Source: Gluconobacter cerevisiae | Lineage (GTDB): Bacteria; Pseudomonadota; Alphaproteobacteria; Acetobacterales; Acetobacteraceae | Reading direction: 5' to 3' | Assembly: GCF_015244675.1 (NCBI RefSeq) | Contig: NZ_JABCQO010000004.1 | Coordinates: 1 to 64,000, forward strand | DNA length: 64,000 nucleotides | Part shown: positions 9,849 through 63,677 of the stretch, one piece after another | How positions within the stretch are numbered: position 1 is the stretch's first letter | Layout: every line of letters starts with the position of its first letter | Notes under the pieces: model-generated | Seen by the model: only the letters and a program-made list of their open reading frames with translations | What the model was told of the DNA's origin: nothing | The model's database searches: none | Made by a program: the position numbers and the translations under genes

Positions 9849-10985
9849 GTGACACGTCCTACGACCTATCTGCTCCGAATGGCCGTTTTCCTTGTCGCGG
9901 TCGGCCTTCTGGCCGCGACAATGGGTACAACCCTGCTTCAGGCCTTCAGCGCAAACCCGAAGCTCGATGCCATCATCCTTGGCGTGCTCCTGCTGGGCAT
10001 CCTGTGGAACCTGCATGTCGTCCAGCGCCTCATGCCGGAAGTGCACTGGGTTGAACTCCTGCGCCAGCCGCGCGCCGGTCTGGCCGCGCCCAAGGCTCCC
10101 CGTCTGCTCGCGCCCATGGCCAGCATGCTGGCGGCCCGCAACCGCACGGACCGCCTGACGCTTTCCACGCAGACGACACAGGCCATGCTCGACAGCCTGT
10201 CCTCTCGTCTGGACGAAAGCCGGGAAATTTCCCGCTACATGACGCAGCTCCTGATCTTTCTCGGTCTGCTGGGCACGTTCTACGGCCTTCTGTTAACGGT
10301 CAGCTCGATCGCCGGTGTCATCGGTGGCATGTCCGCAGGCAGCGGTGACATGGACGTCATGTTCAACCAGCTCAAGACGGGCCTTGCCGGACCGCTTGCC
10401 GGAATGTCTACGGCGTTTTCGGGCTCTATGTTTGGCCTCGCCGGCGCACTGGTCCTCGGCTTTCTGGACCTGACAGCAGGACAGGCCCAGACCCGCTTCT
10501 TCAACGAACTGGAAGAATGGCTGGCTGGCGTCACACGCGTCACGGGTAGCACGTCCATCGACAGCGACGGCGCCCCTGTTCCGGCCTATGTTCAGGCTCT
10601 GCTCGAACAGACCGCCGAAAATCTGGAAACGCTCCAGAACGCCGTCTCCCGCAGCGAAGAGAACCGCGTCCGCGAACTGCACATGCTCGACAGCCTTCAG
10701 GAACGCCTGCGCGGCATGACAGATCTGCTCGCCGCCAACCAGACACTCATGACCCGTACGGCCGAAACCCAGACCGCCCTTCTGCGCCATATGGGCGATG
10801 ACGGTCCGGGCTCTCAGGGAACAGCGCTTCTGCGGATCGAGACGCATCTCAGCCGTCTGATTCAGGAGCTTCATGAAGGCCGCGCCCAGACAATCGGGGA
10901 GCTTCGCAACGATCTCCGTGTTCTGGCCCGCACGATTGCCGCGGCCTCTGGCAGCACGACGCCCTCCCCCGGCAGGCAGGACTGA
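9849..10985 (+). CDS. MotA/TolQ/ExbB-type stator-like membrane protein
   Basis: A 378-residue inner-membrane protein starting at GTG 9849. Four membrane segments can be seen: about residues 10-31, 36-58, 130-160 (YMTQLLIFLGLLGTFYGLLL) and 180-205 (AGMSTAFSGSMFGLAGALV). The third and fourth carry the Gly/Ala/Thr-rich helices typical of the MotA_ExbB family, which build a proton channel around a MotB/ExbD-like helix. The C-terminal 150 residues are a predicted coiled coil (SRSEENRVRELHMLDSLQ). The next gene starts 3 bp after its stop and encodes the expected MotB-like partner. Confidence 0.85.
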   Translation: MTRPTTYLLRMAVFLVAVGLLAATMGTTLLQAFSANPKLDAIILGVLLLGILWNLHVVQRLMPEVHWVELLRQPRAGLAAPKAPRLLAPMASMLAARNRTDRLTLSTQTTQAMLDSLSSRLDESREISRYMTQLLIFLGLLGTFYGLLLTVSSIAGVIGGMSAGSGDMDVMFNQLKTGLAGPLAGMSTAFSGSMFGLAGALVLGFLDLTAGQAQTRFFNELEEWLAGVTRVTGSTSIDSDGAPVPAYVQALLEQTAENLETLQNAVSRSEENRVRELHMLDSLQERLRGMTDLLAANQTLMTRTAETQTALLRHMGDDGPGSQGTALLRIETHLSRLIQELHEGRAQTIGELRNDLRVLARTIAAASGSTTPSPGRQD

Positions 10986-10988
10986 TCC

Positions 10989-11990
10989 ATGGCCCGGCGC
11001 AGACGCGGATCTCACAACGCCCTTGATGCCTGGCCCGGCTATGTGGACGCCCTGTCCACCCTGCTGATGGTCGTCACTTTCGTTCTGCTCGTCTTCGTCG
11101 TGGGCCAGCAGTTCCTTTCAGTCTCACTCTCAAGGCGCGAACATACGCTTGATGCCCTGCAAAAGCAGTTGGCCGAGCTGTCACACATGCTGTCGATGAC
11201 GGAAGACAAGAACAAAAGTCTGTCCTCCACCGTCGCCACGCTGTCTGACGAAAAACAGCGCAATCAGGCTCAGCTCCAAACCCTTTCGACCCAGATCGCG
11301 ACCCTGACGGGCCAGCTCCAGTCGAAAGATCAGGCTCTGGCCTCGGCAGACGACACGAGCAAACAGCAGAACAGCAAGATCTCTGACCTTCAGGCGCAGG
11401 TTGAAGAACTGACCCGCCAGCTTCAGGCGATCAGCAACGCCCTCGACCTCGAAAAAAAGAACGAGCAGGGCAAAGATGCCCAGATTGCGGATCTTGGTAA
11501 CAAGCTAAATCTGGCGCTGGCAGATAAGGTCAATCAGCTCAAACACTACCGGTCAGAATTCTTCGGGCGCCTGCGCGATCTGCTGAAAAACCAGAAAGGC
11601 GTGAATGTCGTGGGAGACCGCTTCGTCTTCCAGTCGGAAATCCTGTTCCCGCAGGGCAGTGCCGATCTGACGCCGGAAGGCCGCAAGGAAATCACAACCC
11701 TTGCCCACACCTTCAAGCAGGTTGCCTCAACGATCCCAAGAGATCTTCCATGGATTCTGCGCGTGGACGGCCACGCCGACCGTCAGCCGATCCATAGCGC
11801 CTTTCCCAGTAACTGGGAGCTGTCCTCCGAGCGCGCAATCACGGTGGTCAAACTGCTCATCGCCGAAGGCGTGGACCCGCGTCATCTAGCCGCGACAGGC
11901 TTTGCCGACTACCAGCCTCTGGACGCGGCCACCACACCGGCGGCCTATGCCAGAAACCGCAGGATCGAGTTCCGTCTGACGGACCGCTGA
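10989..11990 (+). CDS. MotB-like OmpA-domain protein with coiled-coil stalk
   Basis: A 333-residue protein with a single N-terminal membrane helix (about 18-42, YVDALSTLLMVVTFVLLVFV). Its Asp20 sits where MotB-type proteins keep the proton-carrying aspartate. Residues about 50-185 form a long coiled coil, and the C-terminal 140 residues are an OmpA/MotB peptidoglycan-binding domain (SEILFPQGSADLTPEGRKEI, LRVDGHADRQPI, NWELSSERAITVVKLLIAEG, RNRRIEFRL). With the preceding gene it could make a proton-driven stator anchored to the cell wall. This is not the flagellar pair by context, as no motility gene is nearby. A terminator follows. Confidence 0.88.
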   Translation: MARRRRGSHNALDAWPGYVDALSTLLMVVTFVLLVFVVGQQFLSVSLSRREHTLDALQKQLAELSHMLSMTEDKNKSLSSTVATLSDEKQRNQAQLQTLSTQIATLTGQLQSKDQALASADDTSKQQNSKISDLQAQVEELTRQLQAISNALDLEKKNEQGKDAQIADLGNKLNLALADKVNQLKHYRSEFFGRLRDLLKNQKGVNVVGDRFVFQSEILFPQGSADLTPEGRKEITTLAHTFKQVASTIPRDLPWILRVDGHADRQPIHSAFPSNWELSSERAITVVKLLIAEGVDPRHLAATGFADYQPLDAATTPAAYARNRRIEFRLTDR

Positions 11991-57089: not shown

Positions 57090-57575
57090 TCAGACCCGCG
57101 CCAGCTCCTGAAGGGCCTGGAGGATCTCCTGCGGCGCGGGTGGACAGCCCGGAATCGCACGCCGCACCGGCGTCAGGGCCTGCAACCCACCCAGCGTCGC
57201 ATAACTGGCCGGAAACGGCCCTCCGTCGACCGCACAGACCCCGACCGCAATCAGACTCCGGCCCGGCGGCATCGCCCGCCAGACCCGGTCTACCATCTCG
57301 GCACAGACCCGCGTCACCGCACCGGTCAGCAGCAGCCAGTCCGCATCCGCCGGATCGTTCACACAGACAAACCCCGCCTGCTCCAGAGCGAAAGCACTGC
57401 CTTTCAGGGACTCGATCTCCATGAAGCAGCCCTCGCATCCGCCCGTCTCCAGCACATAAAGCCCGATGGGACGCTCACGACGCGGACGCAATTCCTCCGA
57501 GGACGGACACCAGCGCCGCGCATCCATGAACGCATAAAGCAGGCTCAGAGGCCCTGTCCGTTGCAACCCCTTCAC
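57090..57575 (-). CDS. HyfI/NuoB-like small subunit of a hydrogenase-related complex
   Basis: A 161-residue protein of the NuoB / group 4 hydrogenase small-subunit family. The four Cys for a [4Fe-4S] cluster are visible: ETGGCEGCFMEIE (about residues 45-57; two Cys), AVGVCAVDGG (about 113) and PGCPPAPQEIL (about 143). A cluster next to a quinone or active site therefore can form. The start is GTG 57575, overlapping the large-subunit stop by GTGA. It is the last gene of the six-gene minus-strand cluster. The C-terminus is short, without extra ferredoxin domains. Confidence 0.85.
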   Translation of the reverse strand: MKGLQRTGPLSLLYAFMDARRWCPSSEELRPRRERPIGLYVLETGGCEGCFMEIESLKGSAFALEQAGFVCVNDPADADWLLLTGAVTRVCAEMVDRVWRAMPPGRSLIAVGVCAVDGGPFPASYATLGGLQALTPVRRAIPGCPPAPQEILQALQELARV

Positions 57576-59011
57576 AACGCAATCCCCGCCGGAGACAGGC
57601 CGATCGACCCCAGAGCCGCAGGCACACGCTCCACGGGACAGTCCCGCAGCATCGCCCCCAGAACCGGCAGAACCGACACACCCGAATCACGGACATGCAT
57701 GCTTTCGATCCGTCCGTTTTTCAGCCGCACCCAGTACCACACGTCTCCGCGCGCCCCCTCGGCCACGCCAATGCCCTCATCCGTGCGGTCCGGCGCGGGT
57801 TCGTCATCATCCAGACCGATGCTCCCCAAAATCCGTTCCATCAGCTTCAGCGAATCCCTGATTTCCGCAAGCCGCAGCCCGTCACGCGCCCGGGCATCGC
57901 CACGGCTCGATCCCGTCGCCCGCAGCGCCTCCAGCCGCATTCCGGATTCCCGCCGCCGCATGTCCATGCTGCGACCGCTCGCCCGCCCCGCCACGCCCCC
58001 AACAGCGAAACGCTCCGCCAGTCGTACATCCAGAACCGCAAAACCGTTCAGACGGGACGCAAAGACCCGATGAAGCTCCTCCAGCGCCGCAAGACGTGGC
58101 TGCATCGTCGCATGAACCGCCTGCGCCAGCGGGACGATTTCCAGCCCCTCGCGAAAGCCGCCACAGTTCACCGTGTCCATCAGACGGCGCGACACACCCT
58201 GCTCCGCACAGGCCTGCGCAATCGCTTCGCGTGCATGATCGCAGTGCGTCGCCAGAAGCTCCGCATCCACACCTCGGGCCGTCCGCGCCATATCAAACAG
58301 ATGGAGCGATATCCGCTCGATCTCCAGAAGGATCATCCACACATCCCGAATTCCCGGCCCCGGAACCTGCCCGCGCGCCTGCGCCACAGCACGCGCAAAT
58401 GCCAGAGGATGCGCCACGAAACCGCCCGCCGTCATCCGTGCTACGAGGAACATGGCCTCCTCCGGCGTCTTCCCCAAAAGACGCGACACCACACCCCGAT
58501 GCGCCCCGCCCGCACAGACATCCACAGTGCGGACTTTCCCTTTCAGAACCTCGAAAGACAGGTCCAGAGGACCACTCAGCCCCGTCTGCTCCGGACGCAG
58601 AAAGCGGCTCCCCCCGAGCGGACGCAGCCCCCCCGAAGCCGGTCCCGGACGGGACGACAATGGCCATGTGGACGTCCAGCCGCCTTCATCCAGCGCAGGC
58701 GTGCCATTCTCGCGCGCTTCCATCGCCTCCACGCCATACAGATCATACGACACGCGCTCGCCCCATTCCGCCCCGGCAAACCGCGACGACGGCGCCAGAT
58801 ACCGACGCTCTTCCACAACCGTACTCGCCAGAAGCGGGCGATCCCCCTCCAGCAACAGGACATAGGCGCGCGCATCATCAGCCCAACACGAGATCAGCGG
58901 CAGCGTCGCGCCCGGAACACAGAGCATATCGCTCCACTGCATAGGATCGAGATGATAATGCGACAGCGCCACACGCTCGCCACTGCGGATGATCCGCCCC
59001 ATACTTCTCAT
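57572..59011 (-). CDS. HyfG/HycE-like large subunit lacking Ni-binding cysteines
   Basis: A 479-residue fusion of a NuoC-like part (about residues 1-130; SRFAGAEWGERVSYDLYGVE) and a NuoD/HycE-like part. The matching segment AGGAHRGVVSRLLGKTPEEA keeps the His-Arg-Gly of the family. Where NiFe hydrogenases have RxCGxC, this protein reads ARMTAGGFVAH, and the C-terminal DPCxxC is replaced by GSIGLSPAGIAL. All four Ni ligands are thus missing, so H2 chemistry is excluded. The start at 59011 overlaps the upstream gene by ATGA. It resembles Ehr-type complexes. Confidence 0.82.
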   Translation of the reverse strand: MRSMGRIIRSGERVALSHYHLDPMQWSDMLCVPGATLPLISCWADDARAYVLLLEGDRPLLASTVVEERRYLAPSSRFAGAEWGERVSYDLYGVEAMEARENGTPALDEGGWTSTWPLSSRPGPASGGLRPLGGSRFLRPEQTGLSGPLDLSFEVLKGKVRTVDVCAGGAHRGVVSRLLGKTPEEAMFLVARMTAGGFVAHPLAFARAVAQARGQVPGPGIRDVWMILLEIERISLHLFDMARTARGVDAELLATHCDHAREAIAQACAEQGVSRRLMDTVNCGGFREGLEIVPLAQAVHATMQPRLAALEELHRVFASRLNGFAVLDVRLAERFAVGGVAGRASGRSMDMRRRESGMRLEALRATGSSRGDARARDGLRLAEIRDSLKLMERILGSIGLDDDEPAPDRTDEGIGVAEGARGDVWYWVRLKNGRIESMHVRDSGVSVLPVLGAMLRDCPVERVPAALGSIGLSPAGIAL

Positions 59012-60096
59012 GGTCGCCACCCCGTCGCCGGATGCCATGCAAGAAACAGCGGGCCACACAAACCGCCCAGCAGAAGAACGGCCTGCGTCACAGCGACGAT
59101 ACCCCGCTCTCCCCTTCCGAAGGCTGGCAGCAGCGTCATAGGGCGTACGGACCACAAAGCAGGCAGCAGACACAGCACCAGCAGAACGAGTTGTGCGGCA
59201 TCAAGCGACCGCCCAATCCCGACCAGCGCGCAGAACACCGGCCATGGTGCGGCTCCTGCCCCGATGACCTCCGCTCCCTCAGCCTCGTGCAGATCCAGAA
59301 CGGCCAGTCCCAACGCCCCCAGAAGCAACAGAACGATCGCCGGACCTTCACCGGTCGCGGCCGCAACAGCACCCAGCGCCGACAGCATCGGCAAGGAGAT
59401 TGTCCGTCCCGTCGAACGTGACAACACCAGCATGAGGAGTGTTCCAAAACCCGCAATCAGCATCAGCAGATGGACCAGCGGATACGCACTCAGGCGGAAC
59501 ATCAGCATCAGCGCTGCAAACCGCAGGCCCGTATCCAGAAGCGCCGCCTCCGGCGCAGGTGCTGGTGATGGTCCCAGACCCGCCACCATGCACAGCCCGA
59601 CCGTAAGCAGAACTGCCCCCAGCGATGACTGCTGCATCGGCAGAAGCGATGCGCCCAGAAGCCCCAGAACAACACCTCCAAGCCGACTGCGTGCGATGTC
59701 CCACACAATCGCAGCCTGACGGGGGCCACGCCCCTCGCGCCACGCCAGAAGCACCGTTCCCGCGCCACACAGGATCGTCACTGCAAAGGCCGAATGGACG
59801 TTCAGCGCCAGCAGCGCACACCCCGTCACCAGAAACGGCAAAATCCGCCCCGTCCGGTCCCGGGCCTGCGGCAGCAGCAACGGAATGGCCGTCACGATGC
59901 AGGAACACGCCGCAGCCAGCGCATCCGTCCCCGGCATCAGCCACACAGCCAGCGGAGTGATGACAAGCCCGGCCACGGCAAACGTCCGGCTACTGGCGGA
60001 CTGCCGGTTTTCAGGCGTCAGGAACAGCAGAAATGCTGCCAGAAGCGGCCAGACAGTAACGGCAAACAGCGTACCGACGGGTGCGAGCGGATGCAT
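59008..60096 (-). CDS. Short HyfF/NuoN-like membrane subunit
   Basis: A 362-residue polytopic protein with about ten predicted helices, positioned as the HyfF subunit. The usual antiporter-like motif with a lysine-bearing helix after LPDAH is not present; the corresponding area reads LGPSPAPAPEAALLDTGLRF, with Arg rather than Lys. It is much shorter than Escherichia coli HyfF (over 500 residues). The start is ATG 60096, sharing a base with the upstream stop (TGATG). Family assignment rests on position and hydrophobic pattern as much as on motifs. Confidence 0.65.
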   Translation of the reverse strand: MHPLAPVGTLFAVTVWPLLAAFLLFLTPENRQSASSRTFAVAGLVITPLAVWLMPGTDALAAACSCIVTAIPLLLPQARDRTGRILPFLVTGCALLALNVHSAFAVTILCGAGTVLLAWREGRGPRQAAIVWDIARSRLGGVVLGLLGASLLPMQQSSLGAVLLTVGLCMVAGLGPSPAPAPEAALLDTGLRFAALMLMFRLSAYPLVHLLMLIAGFGTLLMLVLSRSTGRTISLPMLSALGAVAAATGEGPAIVLLLLGALGLAVLDLHEAEGAEVIGAGAAPWPVFCALVGIGRSLDAAQLVLLVLCLLPALWSVRPMTLLPAFGRGERGIVAVTQAVLLLGGLCGPLFLAWHPATGWRP

Positions 60097-60617
60097 CAGA
60101 CGTCCTCCACCCGTCGCCACGCCAGACGGGGCAGCAGCGTGACGCCAAGTGCCGCCAGAACGCCCCACAGGCTCAGAGCCGCGACAAAAAGCGGCCATGA
60201 ATTCAGAACACACGCCACAACAACCAGCCCGTCCGCCGCCCGGATCAGCCCAGTAAACTGAACCAGCGGCGTTCCCCACGCCGCACCACATAACCCGGCC
60301 AAAACCGCCCCCGCGCCCAGAACCGGCGCAAGTCCCAGACCAGCCCCCGACAAACCAAGTGCCAGAAGCAGAACAAGCGTACCCACAACCGGCAGAACAG
60401 CCGCCTTGTCCGGCGCTTCCGGCGCAAACCGTCGCAGCCAGATCCATGCCAGAACGTTCAGCCCGATCAGCGCCACGGACGTCAGCAGCGCCATCAACCC
60501 CGAACAAACCGTCGCCCCGGCAAAAGCGCAAACGGCCCCATAAAGCGGCAACCCCCGCCCATCTTTCCCCAACCCTGCAAGGGCCAGCAGCAGAAGCAGT
60601 CCGAACCCTACAATCAT
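60096..60617 (-). CDS. HyfE-like membrane subunit
   Basis: A 173-residue protein with about five to six helices, starting at ATG 60617, where it overlaps the upstream stop by ATGA. It begins IVGFGLLLLLALAGLGKDGR and has conserved-looking polar spots FAPEAPD and GLIRAADGLVVVACVLNSWP, the latter like the NuoK-type helix of HyfE. In Escherichia coli HyfE (about 216 residues) the N-terminal half resembles NuoK. Assignment is by position and topology. Confidence 0.68.
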   Translation of the reverse strand: MIVGFGLLLLLALAGLGKDGRGLPLYGAVCAFAGATVCSGLMALLTSVALIGLNVLAWIWLRRFAPEAPDKAAVLPVVGTLVLLLALGLSGAGLGLAPVLGAGAVLAGLCGAAWGTPLVQFTGLIRAADGLVVVACVLNSWPLFVAALSLWGVLAALGVTLLPRLAWRRVEDV

Positions 60618-61483
60618 GTGCCAAACCTCCCCGCCAGAGCCAGAAGAAGCGCCACACCCGCAAACAGCGCCGTCAGCCGCGCGCTCCGTTCCTGCGCCAT
60701 CAGTCTCAGCCCGACCGCCACGCCCACAGCCAGCGCCAGCCGTGCGACAAGCGCAACCAACCCGAGCCACCAGCCCTGAACGCCTCCCTGCGCGAGCCCC
60801 ACACTCACCGGCCATGCCAGATCAGCCAGCAGCAGCAGCCAGCCACAATTCAGCACATCCGCAATACTGCGCGCCGCCTCACGCTCCTGCCGGTCCCGCA
60901 CCCCGGACAACATACCCGTCACATCCTCGGAACGAAGCGGCGGACATGCAATTCCCAGAGCCAGCGCACAGGCCGCAAGCGCACCTTCCAGACCCGGCTC
61001 AGGCTCGATATGCAACATCGCACACAAGCCCCCAAGGCCATCCGTCCCCGGAGCGGCCAGCGCAATCAGTGCTTCCGTCAAACACAACAGCAGAATCGCC
61101 GGCACCAGACGCAAAGCCTCTCCTGACAGAGCGCACAGCCCCAGAAATCCACGTCCCATCAACAGCATCAGGCCCATGACGAGCGGGTCCGCCTGCGAGG
61201 ACAACACCGACCCCGTCGTCACCGCAGGCAGACACACAAGCGTCAGCACACCCACCGTCAACGCAAGCGCAGGACGCCCTGGAAGCGGTTTTTGAAACAG
61301 GTTTTTCCAGAAACGACCCGCACCAAAAAGACGAAACCGCACTGCCCCCCCCGCGCGGCCCGCCAGCCAGAACGGCAGACTGTCCAAACACCATCCCAGC
61401 ACAGGTGCCAGAACCAACAGCAGCCCCAGTTGGAACAGCGCTTCCAGCACAGACAACGCAATCAGCCCCGCGTCATGCGCCAT
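60614..61483 (-). CDS. HyfC/NuoH-like membrane subunit
   Basis: A 289-residue polytopic protein. The segment LGWCLDSLPFWLAGRAGGAV with RFRLFGAGRFWKNLFQKPLP (about residues 29-70) parallels the NuoH/HyfC stretch in which an Arg-rich loop follows helix 1 and leads to a K-x2-KE-like motif. Glu in LSGEALRLVPAILLLCLTEA and LHIEPEPGLEGALAACALAL may correspond to charged residues of the quinone/proton channel. The start ATG 61483 overlaps the hyfB-like stop (TAATG). It is near HyfC length (about 315). Confidence 0.75.
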   Translation of the reverse strand: MAHDAGLIALSVLEALFQLGLLLVLAPVLGWCLDSLPFWLAGRAGGAVRFRLFGAGRFWKNLFQKPLPGRPALALTVGVLTLVCLPAVTTGSVLSSQADPLVMGLMLLMGRGFLGLCALSGEALRLVPAILLLCLTEALIALAAPGTDGLGGLCAMLHIEPEPGLEGALAACALALGIACPPLRSEDVTGMLSGVRDRQEREAARSIADVLNCGWLLLLADLAWPVSVGLAQGGVQGWWLGLVALVARLALAVGVAVGLRLMAQERSARLTALFAGVALLLALAGRFGT

Positions 61484-62724
61484 TACGTCATCACTCCCAG
61501 CACCGCGAGAACGAGGCCGAGAAGAACAAGCCAGAGCCCCACGGCCCCATGACGCAGGTCGGGCAGAACTGGTGCTTTCATCCCCTTCAGCCCCCTCAAG
61601 CGAACTCGCCCCGACACGACAAAACGGCGCAGGCTCCAGCCCAGAGACGGCGCCTCTTCAAACAGGGCATCGCCTGATGCCAGCAGTGTCATCAATGCCG
61701 GAGCCAGCGTGGAGGCTGCGTGAACGATCCCCCCCATAATGCGCCAGGGACGCACGAGAACAATCCAGATCAGGGCTCCAACCATCACAAAGGCCATCAG
61801 CCGGAAATGGGAGCCATCGCCTGCACCTATACTCCAGACGGGCCAGACCCATTCCCCTCCCACACCATGCAGCGCAGGGCTTGTCAGCCCGAACACCAGC
61901 ACGGGCAGCAGCAGACTCCCAGCACCCACCAGCAATACGGAAACGCCGGATATGGCAGCCTGTCCTCCAGACATCTGCCGCCCAACAACAAGCAGATCGG
62001 ACAGCGCCAGAACGCCCAGAAGCAACGCCACAATCACGCCGAGCACGCTCCAGCCCTCGACACCCGCCGCCATACCCAAGGCCGCATGAATCCCAAGCCA
62101 CAACACAACCAGTCCGGGCAAAGGCGGAAACGGCAGCCGCAATACGGTCAGTGCCGGAAACCGAGGCTCCAGTGATGCCATCAAAACCAGCGTTGCGAGA
62201 TCAAGAAGCGCGGCTTCCAGCGCAATCCGGGCACAGACCGCAAGCCCCTCATTCTGCGCGGCCACCACGAGAACCATCAACAGAACGGGACGCAAAAGCC
62301 CCAGATTTCCCGGCCGATGCGCTCCCAGAACGGACCATCCGATCAACCCGAGCACACACACGCCCAGACCCGCAACCAGCTCCACCGATACCGCCCCCGG
62401 AGCATGCCACACCAGCGACACGCCCAGAATGCTCATAACGGCGGACCAGCCCCCGTCTCTGCGACGCACGAGCGCAGGCCAGAACAGAACAGGCAGCAGC
62501 CCCAGCAGAACAGGCGTCTGGGCGGGAAACAGAACGCTCAGCAGCAGAACCGGAACGCTCCACACCGCCGGACAGCCATCCCGCTCCTGCGCCGCAATCA
62601 CACCCAGCGCCACAGCCAGCACGGCAGGCGAAAGCGCCAGTACCGCAGCCAGAGCCGCCAGACACACGACTACGGCCTTCCCGAGCCGCCCCGGCTGGAT
62701 CGCCAGCACACAGGCGGGCACCAC
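61483..62724 (-). CDS. Truncated HyfB/NuoL-like antiporter subunit
   Basis: A 413-residue hydrophobic protein with about 11-12 helices at the head of the cluster. The family average is over 600 residues. The GTG at 62724 is only a formal start: the frame is open and protein-like upstream to 62799 (TDPVSLCLAVLVV preceding), with no ATG, GTG or TTG, and no ribosome binding site. The LPDAH-Lys antiporter signature is not visible. It may use a CTG start, or its N-terminus may have been lost. The aldo/keto reductase gene ends about 108 bp upstream. Confidence 0.65.
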   Translation of the reverse strand: MVPACVLAIQPGRLGKAVVVCLAALAAVLALSPAVLAVALGVIAAQERDGCPAVWSVPVLLLSVLFPAQTPVLLGLLPVLFWPALVRRRDGGWSAVMSILGVSLVWHAPGAVSVELVAGLGVCVLGLIGWSVLGAHRPGNLGLLRPVLLMVLVVAAQNEGLAVCARIALEAALLDLATLVLMASLEPRFPALTVLRLPFPPLPGLVVLWLGIHAALGMAAGVEGWSVLGVIVALLLGVLALSDLLVVGRQMSGGQAAISGVSVLLVGAGSLLLPVLVFGLTSPALHGVGGEWVWPVWSIGAGDGSHFRLMAFVMVGALIWIVLVRPWRIMGGIVHAASTLAPALMTLLASGDALFEEAPSLGWSLRRFVVSGRVRLRGLKGMKAPVLPDLRHGAVGLWLVLLGLVLAVLGVMT

Positions 62725-62831: not shown

Positions 62832-63677
62832 TCAGATCATGGCGAGAGATAGCTTGCGTTTCGGAGAAGGGAAAGCGCCGTCAAGCGTTTTGAGATCCGC
62901 ATCCGTCAGGCTGATCTCCAGACTGGCCAGATTTCCCGCCACATGCTTCTCAGACGCGGCCTTCGGAATGGCCAGAACATTTGGCCGACGCAACACCCAG
63001 GCCAGAGCAATCTGGGCCGGATCGGCAGGCCCAAGCGACGTTTCATGCCGTGATGCCACCTCTTTTAGTGCCGGATGCTCCAGAAGCTCCCCACCCTGCC
63101 CAAGCGGCGAATAAGCCATCGTCACCGTCCCGGATTTCAGATCATGGTCCAGAAGATCGAACTCCGTCCCCCGGTGCTCCAGATTGTACAGAACCTGATT
63201 AACCAGACAGTTTTCGGACAGGCTTTCGATCTCTTCCATGTCATCGACATCGAAGTTCGACACCCCCCAGCCCCGGATCAGACCGTCGTCCTTCAGATCT
63301 TCAAAGGCGCGGATCGTTTCCTCAAGTTGCGTCCCCCCGTGCCAGTGCAGCAGATACAGATCCAGCCACTCCGTTCCCAGATGCTTCAGAGAACGCCGGC
63401 ACGCCTTGTGAACCCCGTCATAAGACGCATTGGACGGCACGATCTTGCTGACGAGATAAACATCCTCTCGCACATCCGTGATCGCCTCACCCACCAGATC
63501 TTCCGAACGCCCGTTTCCATACATCTCAGCGGTATCAATAACCCGCAGACCGGCCTCCAGCCCCTTGCGCAGGCTCTCGATTTCGCTGCTGCGCCGTGAG
63601 GCACTATCGCCAATACTCCAAGTTCCCATTCCCAGTGCAGGAACCGTAACACCATTCCTGAGCGTGACTGTTTTCAT
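62832..63677 (-). CDS. Aldo/keto reductase
   Basis: A 281-residue NADPH-dependent oxidoreductase with the AKR barrel. The catalytic tetrad can be seen: Asp and Tyr in RVIDTAEMYGNG (about residues 46-57), Lys in VYLVSKIVPSN and His in LDLYLLHWHGG. The C-terminal cofactor region is VLAIPKAASEKHVAGNLASL. It reduces carbonyl compounds or aldoses; acetic acid bacteria carry several such enzymes. It lies upstream of the hydrogenase-like cluster on the same strand, with a 108-bp gap, so read-through is possible but a functional link is inference. Confidence 0.92.
   Translation of the reverse strand: MKTVTLRNGVTVPALGMGTWSIGDSASRRSSEIESLRKGLEAGLRVIDTAEMYGNGRSEDLVGEAITDVREDVYLVSKIVPSNASYDGVHKACRRSLKHLGTEWLDLYLLHWHGGTQLEETIRAFEDLKDDGLIRGWGVSNFDVDDMEEIESLSENCLVNQVLYNLEHRGTEFDLLDHDLKSGTVTMAYSPLGQGGELLEHPALKEVASRHETSLGPADPAQIALAWVLRRPNVLAIPKAASEKHVAGNLASLEISLTDADLKTLDGAFPSPKRKLSLAMI

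What the first reader, a model, noticed from the sequence alone, without database searches (positions are those of the whole stretch)
57090..62724. Hydrogenase-4-like six-gene complex without Ni site: an Ehr-type membrane complex
The sequence shows six minus-strand genes in the order HyfB-, HyfC-, HyfE-, HyfF-, HyfG-, HyfI-like, each overlapping the next by 1-4 bases. The large subunit has ARMTAGGFVAH where NiFe enzymes have RxCGxC, and lacks the C-terminal CxxC. The small subunit retains CEGC, GVC and GCPP for one [4Fe-4S] cluster. No HyfA/HyfH ferredoxin-like protein, formate dehydrogenase or hydrogenase maturation gene is present. Energy-converting-hydrogenase-related (Ehr) complexes of this kind are known by sequence only, linking complex I and group 4 hydrogenases. 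Inference: a quinone- or ion-linked complex with an unknown electron partner in an obligate aerobe.
Basis: partly seen in the sequence, partly recalled or inferred. Interest (0 to 1): 0.78.

Follow-up and report, generated by a model that had tools for sequence, protein, structure and literature searches.

The report
Complex I relative lacking pump residues
A six-gene relative of respiratory complex I in a bacterial genome lacks both the hydrogenase metal site and the usual proton-pump residues, yet keeps its iron-sulfur cluster site and is under selection, so it may be a natural non-pumping version of a pump.

Summary
The six genes are real and as described: hyfB-C-E-F-G-I-like, minus strand, overlapping by 1-4 bases, no Ni ligands, four cluster cysteines kept. 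In the genome I found no [NiFe] large subunit, HypD, second complex-I 49-kDa subunit or recognisable NuoL/M/N protein. Closest named system: the six-gene Hyq complex of Azorhizobium, Ehr-like, reported in 2012 to lack both CxxC motifs (PMC3357923, passages).
Best reading: an uncoupled, non-pumping electron-transfer relative of Hyq/Ehr. Donor and acceptor are unknown; scaffold/sensor and rewired-pump rivals stay open. The organism's name is not confirmed.

The parts
61483..62724 (-). hyfB-like gene, 413 aa, GTG start; short antiporter-like (NuoL-type) subunit lacking the canonical Glu/Lys residues
60614..61483 (-). hyfC-like gene, 289 aa; NuoH-like membrane anchor that has lost most residues conserved in canonical relatives
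   Evidence: profile built from its relatives hits E. coli HyfC at 1.2e-40; hhalign to canonical HyfC probability 97.1
60096..60617 (-). hyfE-like gene, 173 aa; lowest dN/dS of the six
   Evidence: profile chain reaching canonical loci; hhalign to canonical HyfE not significant; dN/dS 0.01-0.08
59008..60096 (-). hyfF-like gene, 362 aa, no lysine; antiporter fold without antiporter lysines
57572..59011 (-). hyfG-like gene, 479 aa; NuoC+NuoD-like large subunit, no Ni ligands
   Evidence: PF00346 2.6e-12
57090..57575 (-). hyfI-like gene, 161 aa, GTG start; small subunit with Cys47, Cys50, Cys114, Cys144 for one [4Fe-4S] cluster
   Evidence: PF01058 8.8e-24; alignment A2
62832..63677 (-). aldo/keto reductase gene 107 bases upstream of hyfB on the same strand; adjacent in many relatives; association only

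Best explanation
The genes encode a membrane complex descended from the six-subunit Hyq/Ehr core of complex I (HyfB, C, E, F in the membrane; HyfG+HyfI on the cytoplasmic side) that has become uncoupled. Shown by sequence or model: no Ni site; one NuoB-type [4Fe-4S] site kept; canonical proton-channel residues lost in HyfB and HyfF and most of those of HyfC; antiporter fold kept; purifying selection. Inferred: HyfI's cluster exchanges electrons with an unknown soluble partner and passes them at the HyfG/HyfI/HyfC interface to a membrane acceptor without moving protons, with HyfBCEF as an inert anchor.
Against: No donor or acceptor is identified. The NuoD His38/Tyr87 counterparts are gone. One relative (L066) has lost the pump residues and three of the four cluster cysteines yet keeps the ORFs; unlinked hyfI of G001 (L216) has lost one; in G126 the middle part of hyfG matches in another frame. 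Charged residues are conserved in the short membrane subunits (HyfF R138 28 of 30, R136 27 of 30, D188 25 of 30; HyfB H213 33 of 35, D303 32 of 35), so ion movement by another route is not excluded. Some short-form relatives have more lysines than the window (HyfF 0-6, HyfB 0-17 in L031-L046). Residue matching in HyfF and the N-terminal half of HyfB rests on weak alignments. All of this is sequence and model evidence.
Confidence: 0.57

Rival explanations
1. A non-catalytic scaffold or redox sensor: the complex stabilises another respiratory complex or reports redox/oxygen state through the HyfI cluster.
For: Quinone-site and pump signatures lost; L066 lost three cluster cysteines too; retained 'deranged' bc1 and COX1-like proteins in Acetobacteraceae have been given a structural role (PMC10715153, passages).
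Against: Four cluster cysteines are kept in all 16 rows of A2, in 107 of 110 HyfI rows and in the unlinked copies examined apart from L216; many HyfG core residues stay invariant.
Confidence: 0.22
2. A rewired energy-converting pump that moves ions with a different residue set.
For: Fold kept; charged residues inside helices conserved in the short forms.
Against: No lysine in the window HyfF; TM7/TM8 Lys and TM5/TM12 Glu lost; NuoH Glu157 counterpart of HyfC in 0 of 17 short-form rows; arginine is a poor proton carrier (general chemistry).
Confidence: 0.14
3. A decaying relic.
For: Fast divergence against a neighbour (HyfB 34-35% to L031/L032 while PssA is 81%); hyfG match shifts frame in G126.
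Against: dN/dS 0.01-0.27; hyfG found in 26 of 26 genus genomes; in 22 other genus loci read, the six ORFs are open over 88-100% of the window proteins except HyfB at two contig ends (L227 absent, L228 63%); hyfI retained when unlinked.
Confidence: 0.05
4. A working [NiFe] hydrogenase or formate hydrogenlyase.
For: Gene names and order resemble E. coli hyf.
Against: All four Ni ligands missing; no HypD or PF00374 in the genome.
Confidence: 0.01

Closest known systems
Hyq complex of Azorhizobium caulinodans (hyqRBCEFGI; PMC2650096, PMC3357923)
   Same: Same six genes in the same order, NuoB-type cluster cysteines, no CxxC in the large subunit (passages). The authors list Rhizobium leguminosarum; the operon of strain 3841 (now R. 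johnstonii; old name recalled) reads SGDSTVAY and SFNCSYSGHDL.
   Different: Window lacks the antiporter residues, is shortened (HyfB 413 vs about 670 aa, HyfF 362 vs about 482 in named relatives), lacks the Hyq-conserved cysteines (A. caulinodans Cys258, 491, 497) and has no hyqR-like gene beside hyfB.
Ehr, energy-converting-hydrogenase-related complexes (PMC6349859, PMC10284858, passages)
   Same: Group-4-hydrogenase-like subunits without Ni/Fe ligands plus antiporter-like membrane subunits.
   Different: Ehr complexes are suspected to move charge; the residues for that are gone here.
E. coli hydrogenase-4 (Hyf) / hydrogenase-3 (Hyc, FHL-1)
   Same: Subunits B, C, E, F, G, I; HyfB best fold match is HycC.
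   Different: No HyfA, HyfD or HyfH gene in the cluster, no Ni site, no HypD.
Respiratory complex I
   Same: NuoB, NuoC/D, NuoH, NuoL/M/N-type parts.
   Different: No NADH module or NuoI in the cluster; His38/Tyr87 counterparts and pump residues lost.

Membership tests
Ehr (group-4-like complex without Ni site) | Large and small subunits homologous to group 4 hydrogenases/complex I | tested here: met
   hits to Complex I 49/20 kDa families, HycE, HycG, NuoB
Ehr (group-4-like complex without Ni site) | Both CxxC Ni-binding motifs absent | tested here: met
   window and 40 of 40 family loci (L052 has one lone Cys); of 80 named loci one has one of the four Cys
Ehr (group-4-like complex without Ni site) | Antiporter-like membrane subunits present | tested here: met
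   by predicted fold; not by Pfam
Ehr (group-4-like complex without Ni site) | Charge translocation (suspected, not shown, in the passages read) | not testable with these tools
   residues for it absent; activity not measurable here
Hyq endo-hydrogenase family | Gene set and order BCEFGI | tested here: met
Hyq endo-hydrogenase family | Four HyqI cluster cysteines | tested here: met
Hyq endo-hydrogenase family | Three HyqG cysteines (A. caulinodans 258, 491, 497) | tested here: not met
   Cys only at 31, 42, 166, 257, 268, 283, 458, none in the last 19 residues; the column with Cys in 23 of 28 canonical rows is Ala245. Positions from PMC3357923 passage; the match of Cys258 to that column is inferred
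Hyq endo-hydrogenase family | hyqR-like regulator next to hyqB | tested here: not met
   upstream gene is an aldo/keto reductase
Hydrogenase-4 | NiFe ligands and maturation | tested here: not met
Respiratory complex I | NuoD quinone ligands His38 and Tyr87 (T. thermophilus; role recalled) | tested here: not met
   alignment to 2fug_4: Ser and Ala; the loop with His38 aligns differently
Respiratory complex I | Antiporter Glu/Lys residues | tested here: not met

The most novel reading that the evidence does not exclude
A clade-wide natural uncoupling of a complex-I-type machine: its electron-transfer half is kept under selection while the fold of the pump is kept and its proton path erased, turning an energy converter into a non-pumping membrane electron carrier. 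If so, these lineages are natural test cases for which parts of the complex I fold serve coupling and which serve only assembly.
Probability: 0.42. Interest if true: 0.82.

Novelty: new variant of a known kind. Interest (0 to 1): 0.62.

Why it matters
How electron transfer is coupled to proton pumping in complex I is a long-standing question. Here a relative seems to have lost pump residues at least twice while keeping the antiporter fold, the cluster site and selection on all six genes, in a genus where, by the 49-kDa search, 25 of 26 genomes have no other complex-I-like large subunit. That makes the coupling question testable, and warns that 'hydrogenase 4' and 'NADH-quinone oxidoreductase' annotations here imply neither hydrogenase nor pump.

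Tried and rejected
Hydrogenase: rejected. Decay: rejected for the genus. HyfI loss: in L039, L041, L043, L044, L046 and L050 hyfI was not in the fetched stretch, which looked like loss of the cluster subunit; one search found it elsewhere in each genome. Functional link to NAD synthesis (hyfI next to an NrtR-type regulator and nadABC in 6 loci): kept only as an aside, since these are related genomes and one rearrangement could explain it. Plain Foldseek on HyfB gave no match at E<=0.001 (best HycC, E 1.1). hhalign of short-form HyfE and HyfF against the canonical families was not significant. Two G. oxydans knockout-collection papers (passages) showed no such gene for my search words in the main text; supplements could not be read. 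Naming the organism by plasmid matches failed.

Print: searches listed no paper that I recognised, from titles and abstract starts, as describing this operon's loss of pump residues. Lists were capped (20 of 253, 15 of 67, 15 of 1,468), and most subscription papers are not held, so this is weak evidence of novelty. PMC10715153 on Acetobacteraceae respiration has no 'Ehr' or 'Hyf'.

Selection: the 40 same-family loci (L031-L070) were picked by me from the 126 genomes with a hit: the first 20 are the best scoring, the rest a mix, so '30 of 40 lost' is not a rate. 'Lost' means none kept, or one in L055, of seven sites; L053 keeps five and 9 loci keep all. The 28 canonical rows are 18 of the 80 named loci plus 10 family loci. 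In one search, HyfB and HyfF counts use only full-length copies (63 and 72 of 80). Of 110 HyfI rows there, L066, L124 and L133 lack three or four Cys. Of 31 further HyfI rows, 30 keep all four and L267 shows gaps and Ala. The 121 of 123 and 3 of 27 counts were read by eye; four genomes not listed were identified by elimination. In one search, 7 of 26 HyfG hits carry a stop inside; the query there included 54 residues upstream of the HyfG ATG, and the HyfG frame is open in all 22 genus loci read.

Full report
OBSERVATION. The six ORFs are present at the stated place, minus strand, in the order hyfB, C, E, F, G, I, overlapping by 1, 4, 1, 4 and 4 bases. HyfI matches PF01058 (8.8e-24) and HyfG PF00346 (2.6e-12); the four membrane proteins match no complex-I family in Pfam or NCBIfam. 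HyfG has no CxxC anywhere and none of the four Ni cysteines; neither motif is present in 40 of 40 same-family loci, with one lone Cys in L052. The genome holds no PF00374 protein, no HypD, and no PF00361 (NuoL/M/N/Mrp) protein at E<=1; the same searches rang in 5, 4 and 13 of 14 control genomes. PF00346 finds only this HyfG in 25 of 26 genus genomes; G169 also has a strong match (6.1e-113) like a complex I subunit.

NAMES. I call the window and L031-L046 'short forms', and the relatives with all antiporter residues 'canonical'.

DISTRIBUTION. HyfG relatives (E<=1e-5) occur in 26 of 26 genus genomes and 126 of 150 same-family genomes, three of these only at NuoD-like scores. In a class sample of 289, 236 have a hit at E<=1e-30, but most look like NuoD; 27 genomes score below 1e-60, three of them same-family (read by eye). 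A named-genome scan kept the best 80 of at least 550 loci, mostly Alphaproteobacteria (Bradyrhizobium, Rhizobium, Azospirillum and others); where the contig allows, they show the BCEFGI order with sizes near 670, 318, 221, 482, 505 and 175 aa.

CLOSEST SYSTEM. This is the gene set of the Azorhizobium Hyq operon (PMC2650096, passages). The same group later wrote that HyqG proteins lack both CxxC motifs and that a Ni,Fe site is uncertain, if not unlikely (PMC3357923, passages), so absence of Ni ligands is not new. The Rhizobium johnstonii 3841 copy confirms it. The passages read on Ehr complexes (PMC6349859, PMC10284858) define them by the same absence.

WHAT IS NEW HERE. Canonical relatives carry the antiporter residues (NuoM Glu144, Lys234, Lys265, Glu407 counterparts): HyfB 63 of 63, HyfF (three sites) 72 of 72; 27 of 28 rows in the detailed table, L053 being partial. 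The window keeps none of seven sites, and 30 of 40 family loci keep none or, in L055, one. The NuoH Glu157 counterpart in HyfC is kept in 0 of 17 short-form rows. Pfam shows the same contrast: canonical HyfB and HyfF hit PF00361 at 4.9e-55 and 6.7e-53, an intermediate HyfB (L047) at 7.8e-4, the window copies not at all. On a HyfG tree, which does not use these columns, 30 'lost' rows (window included) group together (SH-aLRT 82), and L070 is a separate loss (quick method; some long branches).

SELECTION AND CO-RETENTION. dN/dS (NG86; 13-14 pairs a gene, sharing genomes): HyfB 0.07-0.27, HyfC 0.07-0.19, HyfE 0.01-0.08, HyfF 0.04-0.11, HyfG 0.02-0.10, HyfI 0.05-0.19; neighbours AKR 0.02-0.11, ROK kinase 0-0.05, PssA 0-0.04. 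So most of the genes evolve faster than two neighbours but under clear constraint. In six genomes with no hyfI near hyfG, hyfI was found elsewhere with its four cysteines; in a seventh, G001, the unlinked copy (L216) has lost one. By eye, 121 of 123 genomes with HyfG (E<=1e-9) have HyfI (E<=1e-32), against 3 of 27 without.

LARGE SUBUNIT. Short-form HyfG (18 rows with L050) keeps many core residues (Arg192, Glu230, Glu232, Arg233, His237, Arg343, Asp350, Arg352, Arg376, Glu418 in 18 of 18), but loses the loop histidines and the C-terminal NKSFNCSYSG. Thermus NuoD His38 and Tyr87 align to Ser and Ala. A quinone site of the complex I type is therefore doubtful.

MECHANISM. Shown: cluster site, fold (by model), loss of pump and Ni residues, constraint. 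Inferred: electrons pass through the HyfI cluster between an unknown partner and a membrane acceptor without proton movement. Rivals are a scaffold or sensor, and a rewired pump. L066 (pump residues and three cluster cysteines lost) and L124/L133 (pump residues kept, four and three cluster cysteines lost) show that either half can be lost in this family, which keeps the scaffold rival alive.

VERDICT. Ehr/Hyq-derived complex: near certain. Canonical proton path lost: likely. Redox function retained: more likely than not. New variant of a known kind.

Noticed in passing
L208, L209, L210, L211, L213, L214 (also L040, L045): hyfI unlinked from hyfBCEFG sits next to an NrtR-type regulator followed by nadA, nadB, nadC in six loci; in L040 and L045 hyfI is followed by the same regulator, with no nadA found in the fetched stretch. 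A link to NAD synthesis or one shared rearrangement.
   Followed up: partly
L124 10479-11012, L133 about 10491-11021, L066 9084-9704: HyfI proteins that lost cluster cysteines (L124 all four: Ser/Ser/Glu/Asn; L133 and L066 three) in otherwise open ORFs; L124 has the canonical pump residues. 30 of 31 further HyfI rows keep all four.
   Followed up: partly
L070, L053: Apparently separate full (L070) and partial (L053) loss of antiporter residues among canonical relatives.
   Followed up: partly
G126:C1:1813626-1814945: hyfG matches come in three pieces, the middle one in a different frame from the outer two; its congener G046 (L050) has the longest end branch on the tree.
   Followed up: no
G000 whole genome: No PF00361 protein at E<=1, so no recognisable complex I or Mrp antiporter subunit.
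   Followed up: yes
window 62832-63677 and many family loci: Order PepA, HolC, aldo/keto reductase, hyfBCEFG(I) recurs in many same-family loci; the reductase was not found in L033-L038.
   Followed up: partly
HyfG Cys268 (479-aa numbering): A cysteine at a position that is mostly Ala in canonical relatives is kept in at least 17 of 18 short-form rows.
   Followed up: no
L207 14083-15123: A DUF4365 gene directly follows hyfI on Rhizobium johnstonii plasmid pRL11.
   Followed up: no
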